The notes under the pieces were generated by a model. It was not told the origin of the DNA and made no database searches. It was given only the letters and a program-made list of their open reading frames with translations. Positions 51,735 to 56,825 of a DNA stretch of 64,000 bases are shown piece after piece; the first letter of the stretch is position 1; each line of letters opens with the position of its first letter. The translations under genes and the position numbers were made by a program. Source of the DNA: Mycobacterium sp. DL592 (GTDB taxonomy: Bacteria; Actinomycetota; Actinomycetes; Mycobacteriales; Mycobacteriaceae); NCBI RefSeq assembly GCF_011694515.1, contig NZ_CP050192.1, forward strand, positions 233,932 to 297,931, in the 5' to 3' direction.

Positions 51735-54700
51735 TTAGGCACTGATAACCGAAAATTTATTGGGGATGTTGGTGACATAGATGTCGCCAGTGTCGGGGTC
51801 GGCCGCTACCACGAGTGGAGAATTGCCGACGGGGATGGTGCCGATCGTGGTGTTGGTGTTGGGGTCGATCACCAACATCGTGCCGTCGGAGCGGGTGACG
51901 TAGACCCCGCGCCCGGGGCTGACCGCCATCCAGACCGGGACGTTTCCGACGGCTATGGTGCCGGTGACGGTGTTGGTGGTGGGGTTGATCACCGACACCG
52001 TGTTGTCACCGTAGTTGGCGACGTAGACGTCGCCGCCGGGGTTCACCGCCACCACGGTCGGATATTGGCCGACGTGAATCGGTGACCCGATCACCGTGTT
52101 GGTGGTGGGGTTGATCACCGACACCGTGTTGTCACCGTAGTTGGCGACGTAGACGTCGCCGCCGGGGTTGACCGCCACCCCGCCCGGGAGGTATCCGACG
52201 GCCACGGTGGCGGTGACGGTGTTGGTGGTGGGGTTGATCACCGACACCGTGTTGTCACCTTGGTTGGTGACGTAGATGTCGCCGCCGGGGTTCACCGCCA
52301 CAAGGGTCGGAGCGTTGCCGACGGCGATGGTGCCGGTGACGGTGTTGGTGGTGGGGTTGATCACCGACACCGTGTTGTCATCTTCGTTGGTGACGTAGAT
52401 GTCGCCGCCCGGGTTGATCGCCAGCCCACCCGGACGGTTGCCGAGGCCGATGGTGTGGATCACGGAATTGGTGGTGGGGTTGATCACCGACACCGTTTGG
52501 CTCATCTTGTTGAGGACGTAGATGTTGCCGCCCGGATTGACCGCCACCACGGCTGGAAGGTTGCCGACGTTGATGGTGGTGATGGTGCCCGCGGCACCGC
52601 CGGTCCCCGCCGTCCCACCGCTGCCGCCCTGGCTGCCCGACGGGGCGCTGCCGGCGCCGCCGGCACCACCGGGGGCGGCGAGTCCGGCGAACACCGCGCC
52701 CCCGACCCCGCCGGTGCCCCCGCTTCCGCCCGTGCCGCCGGTGCCCGCTTGTCCGGTGAGTCCGGTCGCGGCGCCGCCCGCGCCGCCTGTGCCGCCGAGC
52801 CCGCCGCTGGCGCCGGCGACGCCCCAACTCGCGCTGTCGGCTCCGGTCCCGCCGGTCCCGCCGGTCCCGCCGGTGCCGCCGGTCCCGCCGGCTCCATCGG
52901 CGCCGCCATCGGTGCCGCTGCCCGCCGCACCGGCTGCGCCGCCGGTTCCGCCCGTACCGCCGGTGCCGCCCGTGAGGGCGGTGGCATCCCCGGCGCCGCC
53001 GGTGCCGCCGGTGCCACCGGTGCCGCCGGTGCCGCCGGTGCCACCCTTCCCGCCCCCGACACCGCCGATTCCGGCACCGCCGGCACCGCCCTGACCGCCG
53101 GCTCCACCGGTGGCGCCACTCGCGCCGGTTCCACCGGGTGTGGCGCCGACCGCACCGGTGCCGCCCTCGCCGCCCTGCCCGCCGGCCCCGCCTGTGCCGC
53201 CGGTGCCGTTGACGCCGTCACCGCCGTAGAGTGCGGCGCCGCCGGCCGCCGTACCGCCGACACCACCTTGACCTGCGGCCCCACCGCTGCCGCCCTGGCC
53301 ACCGTTGCCGCCCGTTCCGGCCCCGTAGTAGGCGTCCGCGCCCGCGCCCGAGCCGCCATTGCCGCCGGCACCGCCATTGCCGCCGGCACCGCCGACGCCA
53401 CCCTGGCCACCAGTTCCGTTGGGCGACAATGCTTTTCCACCCGCGCCGCCCGCACCGCCAGCGCCACCAGATGACCCGGTACCACCGTCGGCACCGTTTT
53501 GCGAGGCGAACAGCAGCCACACCTTGTTGTTATGGGCGGTTGTGACATAGGCGCGGGTGCCGTCGGGGCTGATCGCCACCCCAGCCGGCTGGCTGCCGCC
53601 TATGTCCACGGTGCCCCCGACCCTGACCGTGTCGATCACCGTGTTACTGGCGGTGTCGATCACCGACACCGAGGACGAGTTGAAATTGGTGACGTAGGCG
53701 TACTTGCCGTTCGGGCTGAACGCCACGCTGCCCGGGCTGGCACCCACCGCAATGGCAGTGGGCAGCACGGAGTTTGTGGCGGTGTCGATCACGGCGACGG
53801 TGCCGTTGTTGACGTTGGTGACGTATGCGTATTTGCCGTCGGGGCTGACCGCCACCGCGTCCGCAGCACTGCCGACCGCGATCGTGGCGACCACGGTGTT
53901 GTACTTGCCGGTGCTGGCGTGGGACGGGTTGGTGTCGATTACCGATACGAACCCGGCGCCGTTGAGGTTGCTGGTGACGTAGGTGTAGTTGCCGTCGGGT
54001 GCGACCGCCACCCCGAGTTGAGGGCCGTTCACCGCGATGGTCGGGCCGACCATGTTTGTCATGGTGTCGATCACCGACACCGAGCTGCCGCTTGCATTGG
54101 CAATGTAGGCGTGGGTGCCGCTGATCGCCACCGCGATCGGATTTGGACCAACCTGCAGGACGGTCACGACCTTGTTGTAGGTGCTGGCGTCCGCTGGGTC
54201 GGTGCCGATCACCGACACCGTCCCGACCCCGACGTCGTTGTCGTCGTTGGGGACATAGGCGAAGCGGCCGTCGGGTGTAATCGCCAGCGCGATGCCGCTC
54301 GGGCCGGTGACGGTGTCGATGACGGTGTTGGTGGCCGTGTCGATGACGGACACCGACACCTTCCCGCTGTTGGCGACGTAGGCGCGGGTGCCGTCCGGCG
54401 TCAGCGCCACCCCCCCCGGCGCTTGCCCGACGGAGATGGGCAGGTCGGGGTTGAAGACGTTCAGCGGCAGCGCAGCAGTCCCGCCGGTGACGCCGGCAGT
54501 CCCGGCGCCGCCGTCGCCGCCCTTTCCGCCTTCACCGCCTTGGCCGCCATTGCCCCCCAGGGCGCCGCTGCTTCCACCCTTACCGCCCTGGCCGCCTTGG
54601 CCGCCGCCGTGGGTGGCATCGCCCTTGGCCCCGTCGCCGCCGGCTCCGCCCTGACCGCCCGTGCCGTAGCTGCCGGCGGCCCCCCCGTTGCCCCCGTTGC

Positions 54701-56825: not shown

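What the first reader, a model, noticed from the sequence alone, without database searches (positions are those of the whole stretch)
51735..56825. Protein with three PGRS regions alternating with three distinct seven-bladed propellers
Each propeller counts exactly seven YVTN-type blades, but each set has its own blade dialect: SGTHAYITN (propeller 1), PDGKYAYVTN (2), NPGGDIYVTN (3). So three different propellers were joined by PGRS linkers rather than one propeller being copied. There is no PE domain or Sec signal, unlike PE_PGRS proteins. A modular, surface-type scaffold is likely.
Basis: partly seen in the sequence, partly recalled or inferred. Interest (0 to 1): 0.8.

Follow-up and report, generated by a model that had tools for sequence, protein, structure and literature searches.

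The report
Patchwork three-propeller protein, export part lost
A very large mycobacterial gene encodes three seven-bladed propeller domains separated by glycine-rich spacers; it looks like a patchwork of two families of exported proteins that has lost the part needed to leave the cell, so it is probably not the surface scaffold it first seemed.

Summary

The reading changes. The gene is a mosaic. Residues ~38-1350 (PGRS-P1-PGRS-P2-PGRS) are collinear with a two-propeller protein elsewhere in this genome (1820 aa), which has a same-layout relative at the same place in another species (2512 aa). Both of those begin with a Sec-like signal and a hydrophobic PGRS. The last ~350 residues (end of PGRS3 + P3) resemble the known PE_PGRS-propeller proteins. 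The change-over lies near residues 1345-1375. The 5' leader resembles that of another signal-bearing PGRS gene here, yet signal and hydrophobic PGRS are missing. The remaining PGRS have the composition of inter-propeller spacers.

So this product is probably not exported; its parent family is the likelier surface display. P1's blades are nearly identical except at six positions, all in loops of one face, as in hypervariable recognition propellers. The join was not found in 395 other Mycobacterium genomes at the sensitivity used. Not tested: expression, long reads, secretion.

The parts
57158..57232 (-). tRNA-Pro (cgg), directly upstream neighbour
   Evidence: ARAGORN
56841..56889 (-). Leader stretch shared (88%, 51 aligned columns) with the leader of another signal-bearing PGRS gene at G000:C1:1918458-1918508
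   Evidence: its 25-base core has 2 matches in the genome, reversed control 0
51735..56825 (-). Likely coding sequence, 1696 aa plus stop, from GTG 56825 (the frame stays open up to GTG 56903)
56079..56792 (-). PGRS1 (aa 38-275), spacer-type
   Evidence: collinear with L061; 13 FWYLIMV of 238
55206..56078 (-). Propeller P1 (aa 276-566), seven near-identical blades
54459..55205 (-). PGRS2 (aa 567-815), spacer-type; 71% identical to the paralogue
53499..54458 (-). Propeller P2 (aa 816-1135), seven diverse blades
52584..53498 (-). PGRS3 (aa 1136-1440), composite
   Evidence: first part matches L061/G098, last part PE_PGRS-propeller proteins
52779..52871 (-). Approximate change-over between the two parental families (aa 1345-1375)
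   Evidence: sliding comparison
51738..52583 (-). Propeller P3 (aa 1441-1722), PE_PGRS-propeller type, ending VSVISA

Best explanation
The gene is a mosaic of two PGRS-propeller families. Its first three quarters descend from a Sec-exported protein laid out as signal - hydrophobic PGRS - spacer PGRS - propeller A - spacer PGRS - propeller B - spacer PGRS. Its end (last part of PGRS3 + P3) descends from a PE_PGRS-propeller gene. It has the leader of a signal-bearing PGRS gene, but the signal and the hydrophobic PGRS are gone. Shown by sequence: the mosaic, the missing N-terminal part, three intact blade sets. Predicted: three seven-bladed folds. Inferred: (1) in the parent family the signal takes the protein out, the hydrophobic N-terminal PGRS holds it to the mycomembrane as in the published 'sailing' model, and the polar spacers hold the propellers apart so that their variable faces meet ligands; (2) this copy, lacking signal and anchor, stays inside the cell as a binder or is a young relic whose propellers could still fold.
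For: Collinear match to L061 over aa 65-861 in one 2488-base stretch, 69%; protein identity 63/56/71/47/69% for PGRS1/P1/PGRS2/P2/PGRS3 aa 1146-1250, then 39% (aa 1251-1440, 70 aligned) and no aligned P3. G098 has the same layout behind the same upstream sequence, 135 bases at 82%. aa 1389-1714 match L035 at 76%, L033 and L041 alike; L033 and L035 have PF00934. Blade tree. Leader. Window PGRS 47 FWYLIMV of 792 against 36/230, 33/230 and 99/617 in N-terminal and PE_PGRS ones (Fisher 1.3e-5, 1.2e-4, 1.1e-9), and like other spacers, 39/689, p 0.91.
Against: No expression or secretion data. PGRS align loosely with each other, so the change-over is approximate; two of the earlier sliding windows (aa 1165, 1210) were ties. 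The leader match is only 51 columns, and the closest full-length relatives L061 and G098 do not share it. The frame is intact over 1722 codons, which fits use as well as recent loss. The hydrophobic/spacer divide is gradual, my cut at 230 residues was arbitrary, and G098's terminal PGRS (77/932, with local peaks) does not fit neatly. AF2 did not fold the PGRS parts.
Confidence: 0.65

Rival explanations
1. A working exported surface scaffold: the protein leaves the cell by an unrecognised signal or with a partner, and its three propellers bind different ligands.
For: Intact frame; three good propeller models; P1 blades conserved except on one face; both parent families are exported types.
Against: No PE, no signal-like stretch, no hydrophobic PGRS; the leader runs straight from the start codon into spacer PGRS.
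Confidence: 0.15
2. An assembly artefact: the 5' loss or the PGRS3 join was made by the assembler between repetitive PGRS genes.
For: Another PGRS gene of this assembly contains a sequencing-adapter-like insert at C1:1917501-1917518 (the adapter is recalled); errors in GC-rich PGRS genes are reported (PMC11939664, section read); P1 has an internal exact repeat of at least 80 bases.
Against: Against the paralogue's region the longest exact match is 35 to 39 bases, and against the C1:1918 kb region and the rest of the window it is under 20, too short for an easy misjoin there; P3 has no second YVTN copy of its type in the genome (five frames in all); no N and no adapter string in the window. The rest of the genome was not compared base by base.
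Confidence: 0.14
3. One propeller was copied twice within this gene and then diverged.
For: All blades are YVTN-type, and blade 3 of P2 has P1's dialect and P1 blades as its best matches.
Against: P3 blades are closer to PE_PGRS blades of other species (means 0.57-0.63) than to P1 (0.52) or P2 (0.44); the tree agrees (branch supports not examined).
Confidence: 0.04

Closest known systems
PE_PGRS / PE proteins with C-terminal YVTN propellers (PMC4758615, passages read; examples L033, L035)
   Same: The end of PGRS3 and P3 match them at about 76% DNA, same blade dialect, same VSVIS ending.
   Different: They have a PE domain and one propeller; the window protein has no PE and two more propellers of another family.
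Signal-bearing, PE-less PGRS-propeller proteins: own-genome L061 (1820 aa) and G098 (2512 aa)
   Same: Collinear PGRS1-P1-PGRS2-P2-PGRS3.
   Different: They begin with a Sec-like signal and hydrophobic PGRS and end in PGRS, not in a third propeller. I found no paper describing this family in the ten searches named in Tried and rejected.
Methanosarcina surface-layer protein YVTN propeller (PDB 1l0q)
   Same: Closest solved sequence for P1 (E 3.8e-61) and P3 (1.2e-51); same seven-bladed fold.
   Different: Archaeal; its entry pairs the propeller with PKD domains, not PGRS (entry title).
Fungal NLR WD-repeat propellers (HET-D/E type)
   Same: Works like: near-identical repeats with a few variable positions that map to the binding surface (PMC4986451, passages read).
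   Different: Not a relative as a system: WD40 blades in intracellular fungal receptors; here no population data and no site-wise selection test.

Membership tests
PE_PGRS | N-terminal PE domain (PF00934) | tested here: not met
   Not among Pfam matches at E<=1; present in L033 and L035
PE_PGRS | Glycine-rich GGX repeats | tested here: met
   46-53% glycine in all three blocks; but the Pfam PGRS model PF21526 is not reported at E<=1
PE_PGRS | ESX-5 dependent export | not testable with these tools
   needs an experiment
Signal-bearing PGRS-propeller family (L061, G098) | PGRS-propeller-PGRS-propeller-PGRS in collinear order | tested here: met
Signal-bearing PGRS-propeller family (L061, G098) | N-terminal Sec-like signal | tested here: not met
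   hydropathy 0.39/1.07 against 2.28-2.32
Signal-bearing PGRS-propeller family (L061, G098) | Hydrophobic N-terminal PGRS | tested here: not met
   5.9% FWYLIMV against 14-16%; motif not seen in the translation
YVTN beta-propeller | YVTN repeats over the curated cut-off | tested here: met
   TIGR02276 548 bits, cut-off 27.85
YVTN beta-propeller | Seven-bladed closed fold | tested here: met
YncE (NF052280) | Equivalog cut-off of 400 bits | tested here: not met
   164 bits
Hypervariable recognition propellers (fungal NLR type) | Near-identical repeats with diversifying positions on one face | tested here: inconclusive
   P1: 6 of 6 positions with 3 or more residues lie in D-A/B-C loops (11 of 40 positions), chance 1.2e-4, but loops were named after seeing the sequence; no site-wise selection test

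The most novel reading that the evidence does not exclude
Mycobacteria carry a Sec-exported family of PGRS proteins in which polar 'spacer' PGRS string out propellers that renew themselves by blade multiplication and vary only on the ligand face, a bacterial counterpart of hypervariable recognition propellers. The window gene would be a private shuffle of that family with a PE_PGRS propeller, now acting inside the cell as a three-headed binder.
Probability: 0.2. Interest if true: 0.75.

Novelty: new variant of a known kind. Interest (0 to 1): 0.5.

Why it matters
It suggests that PGRS stretches are joints along which mycobacteria shuffle whole domains between a Sec-exported and a PE (ESX) family. 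It also separates two kinds of PGRS by composition: hydrophobic ones at the N-terminus or behind PE, which fit the membrane 'sail' model, and polar ones between domains. That gives a testable prediction about which PGRS bind the mycomembrane. And it warns that a PGRS protein without PE or signal should not be assumed to sit at the surface.

Tried and rejected
Integration at the tRNA: the tRNA-Pro 3' end has no second copy in the window at up to 3 mismatches, so a tRNA-integrated element is not supported. Inverted repeats: five GC-rich pairs, 73-82% complementary, no terminal pair. Promoter and terminator scan of 56700-57300: nothing (sigma-70 type only). Leader in plasmids: no match. Protein searches returned generic YVTN proteins; both scored only the 8000 candidates sharing most words and the listed rows did not include the window's own protein, so they say nothing on absence. 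TIGR03866 scores over its cut-off (372 against 287 bits), which I read as the sum of several propellers and not as membership. Recent conversion of PGRS2 from L061: not supported, fourfold sites differ there as much as in neighbours. Decay test: pN/pS among P1 blades (0.149/0.115) cannot tell use from relic. The same partition in PE_PGRS propellers gave mixed results: top/rest pN/pS 3.47/3.26 (L033, one blade misaligned by a residue), 2.93/0.71 (L035), 1.95/1.00 (L041). A first, stricter pattern for the N-terminal PGRS module found it in 18 of 30 loci and the YVGR motif in 4; I then used tblastn. Left out of the 'other spacers' count: L061 N-terminal second half 19/280, G098 second half 14/277, G098 terminal PGRS 77/932. 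The fit to the 'sail' model is by composition only. VIA rows are a second look at Foldseek's best chains; families not listed there are not excluded. Literature: ten searches. One search (PGRS + YVTN) gave 0 papers, but 'PE_PGRS' is read there as one word, so it proves no absence.

Full report
WHAT IS THERE. The window carries a 5169-base frame on the minus strand, 51735-56903. Seven YVTN motifs were counted in each of three blocks, and a profile search gives 7+7+7. Three glycine-rich blocks (46-53% glycine) precede and separate them. Neither Pfam nor a hydropathy check shows a PE domain or signal.

WHERE IT CAME FROM. Five frames of this genome carry YVTN matches (35 matches at E<=0.001). One, at C1:538033-543492 (L061, 1820 aa), is PGRS-rich with two propellers. 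It starts with a Sec-like signal, a Ser/Thr/Ala-rich stretch, then PGRS. One 2488-base stretch of the window gene (aa 65-861) matches it at 69%. Protein identity by segment is 63% (PGRS1), 56% (P1), 71% (PGRS2), 47% (P2), 69% (PGRS3 aa 1146-1250), then 39% over 70 aligned residues, then nothing; fourfold sites differ by 0.41-0.46 in PGRS1-P2 and 0.55 in PGRS3 aa 1146-1250. So PGRS2 is better kept than the propellers it separates, without sign of recent conversion. A second species (G098) has a 2512-aa protein of the same layout behind the same upstream sequence (135 bases at 82%), so I treat the two as orthologues. A third genome (G032) has a shorter PGRS-propeller frame at a contig end.

The last part differs. 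aa 1389-1714 match L035 at 76%, and L033 and L041 alike. L033 and L035 have PE domains by Pfam, L041 by a motif only; each has one propeller and ends VSVISG. L032/L131 are frame-broken relatives with PE parts. In a tree of 77 blades P3's blades fall with these PE_PGRS blades, P1's seven form one clade and P2's scatter among L061/G098 blades (supports not examined). A sliding comparison puts the change-over at aa 1345-1375, with ties at two earlier windows. Both parents have PGRS there, so recombination between PGRS is the simplest route; it was not observed.

THE MISSING START. A leader stretch (56841-56889) is 88% identical over 51 columns to C1:1918458-1918508. That place lies directly before the start of another PE-less PGRS gene with signal and hydrophobic PGRS. 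A 25-base core has two matches in 5.1 Mb; the reversed control has none. L061 and G098 do not share the leader. So the window gene has the leader of a signal-bearing PGRS gene but goes from start codon straight to spacer PGRS. Whether by deletion or by another recombination I cannot say.

TWO KINDS OF PGRS. FWYLIMV residues: 36/230 and 33/230 in the first 230 PGRS residues of L061 and G098, 99/617 in three PE_PGRS, 47/792 in the window's three PGRS, 39/689 in three other spacers. Fisher p against the window: 1.3e-5, 1.2e-4, 1.1e-9, 0.91. The 230 cut was mine and the decline along L061's PGRS is gradual; G098's terminal PGRS (77/932) was left out of the spacer count and has hydrophobic patches. 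In the 'sailing' model the hydrophobic edge roots PGRS in the mycomembrane (PMC9436101, parts 1-2 of 3 read). By that criterion the window protein has no anchor. The N-terminal module is common: 84 of 297 Mycobacterium genomes. Of the 30 loci fetched, 23 show a signal-like stretch by a crude rule and 0 the PE motif searched for. A review notes PGRS proteins in M. smegmatis with a doubtful N-terminus (PMC11939664, section read).

ONE VARIABLE FACE. P1's six full blades show 3 or more residues at six positions, all in the D-A and B-C loops (strands), which lie on one face, usually the ligand face (recalled). The A-B and C-D loops hardly vary (pS 0, pN 0.017). 6 of 6 in 11 of 40 positions has chance 1.2e-4, but I named the loops after seeing the sequence, and a shift by one position scores slightly better (20 against 19). 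In P3 (four blades) 15 of 29 excess residues lie there, and no other shift reaches that. PE_PGRS propellers gave mixed pN/pS contrasts. The pattern resembles fungal WD-repeat receptors with near-identical repeats and four selected positions on the interaction surface (PMC4986451, passages). It is a lead, not a test of selection.

NEIGHBOURHOOD. The gene lies between tRNA-Pro(cgg) and a PE-PPE-domain gene in which Pfam finds no PE. Of seven relatives' loci, five match on both sides of the place and two (L128, L129) on the tRNA side only. In the six whose gap I listed (not L129), frames of 120 aa or more have no YVTN motif. The join region searched in 396 genomes gave listed matches of at most 71% outside the own genome, with one candidate scored per genome and the list cut. 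P3 alone matches 115 of 297 genomes at 1e-20, the best other being 62% in G045; of the 29 other loci fetched (L032-L060), 8 have PGRS-rich frames with 3 or more blades. P1 matches 32 of 119 at 1e-25, P2 8 of 148. So the mosaic seems private to this species or a close group.

HOW IT WORKS, MOST LIKELY. Parent family: exported by Sec, held by the hydrophobic PGRS, propellers displayed on polar spacers, ligands on the variable face (inferred). This copy: no export, so a cytosolic binder or a young relic. I put 0.65 on mosaic plus non-export together, and more on the mosaic alone.

CAVEATS. One assembly, in which another PGRS gene holds an adapter-like insert. The window shows no N and none of eight adapter strings, and the gene shares no exact word of 40 bases with the paralogue's region. 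P1 has an internal exact repeat of at least 80 bases, so short reads could misjudge blade number there, though seven is what the closed ring needs.

Noticed in passing
G000:C1:1917501-1917518 (L163): A PE-less PGRS gene of this genome contains a string that I recall as a transposase-library sequencing adapter, beside low-complexity sequence: probably an assembly artefact.
   Followed up: partly
window 54036-54176 (aa ~910-956): Blade 3 of P2 carries P1's SGTHAYI dialect inside an otherwise different propeller: a trace of blade exchange or of P1's seed blade.
   Followed up: partly
window 34866-37802 (-): A second YVTN protein, 978 aa, with a signal-like start and a bacterial Ig-type (Big_9) match.
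   Followed up: no
window 50714-51586 (+): PE-PPE-domain (PF08237) protein without a PE or PPE match and with a signal-like start, next to the mosaic gene.
   Followed up: no
window 49773-50579 (+): Small exported-looking protein with LPQMP/LPPPPPIGLPQ repeats; similar starts are seen at the same place in L124-L127.
   Followed up: no
L131 (G045:C1:6070000-6079000): Two tandem PE_PGRS-propeller genes, both with PE part and propeller in different frames.
   Followed up: no
L199 (G018:C7:158000-177900): A PE-less, signal-bearing PGRS frame of at least 4713 aa within the stretch read (4929 aa reported), without propellers.
   Followed up: no
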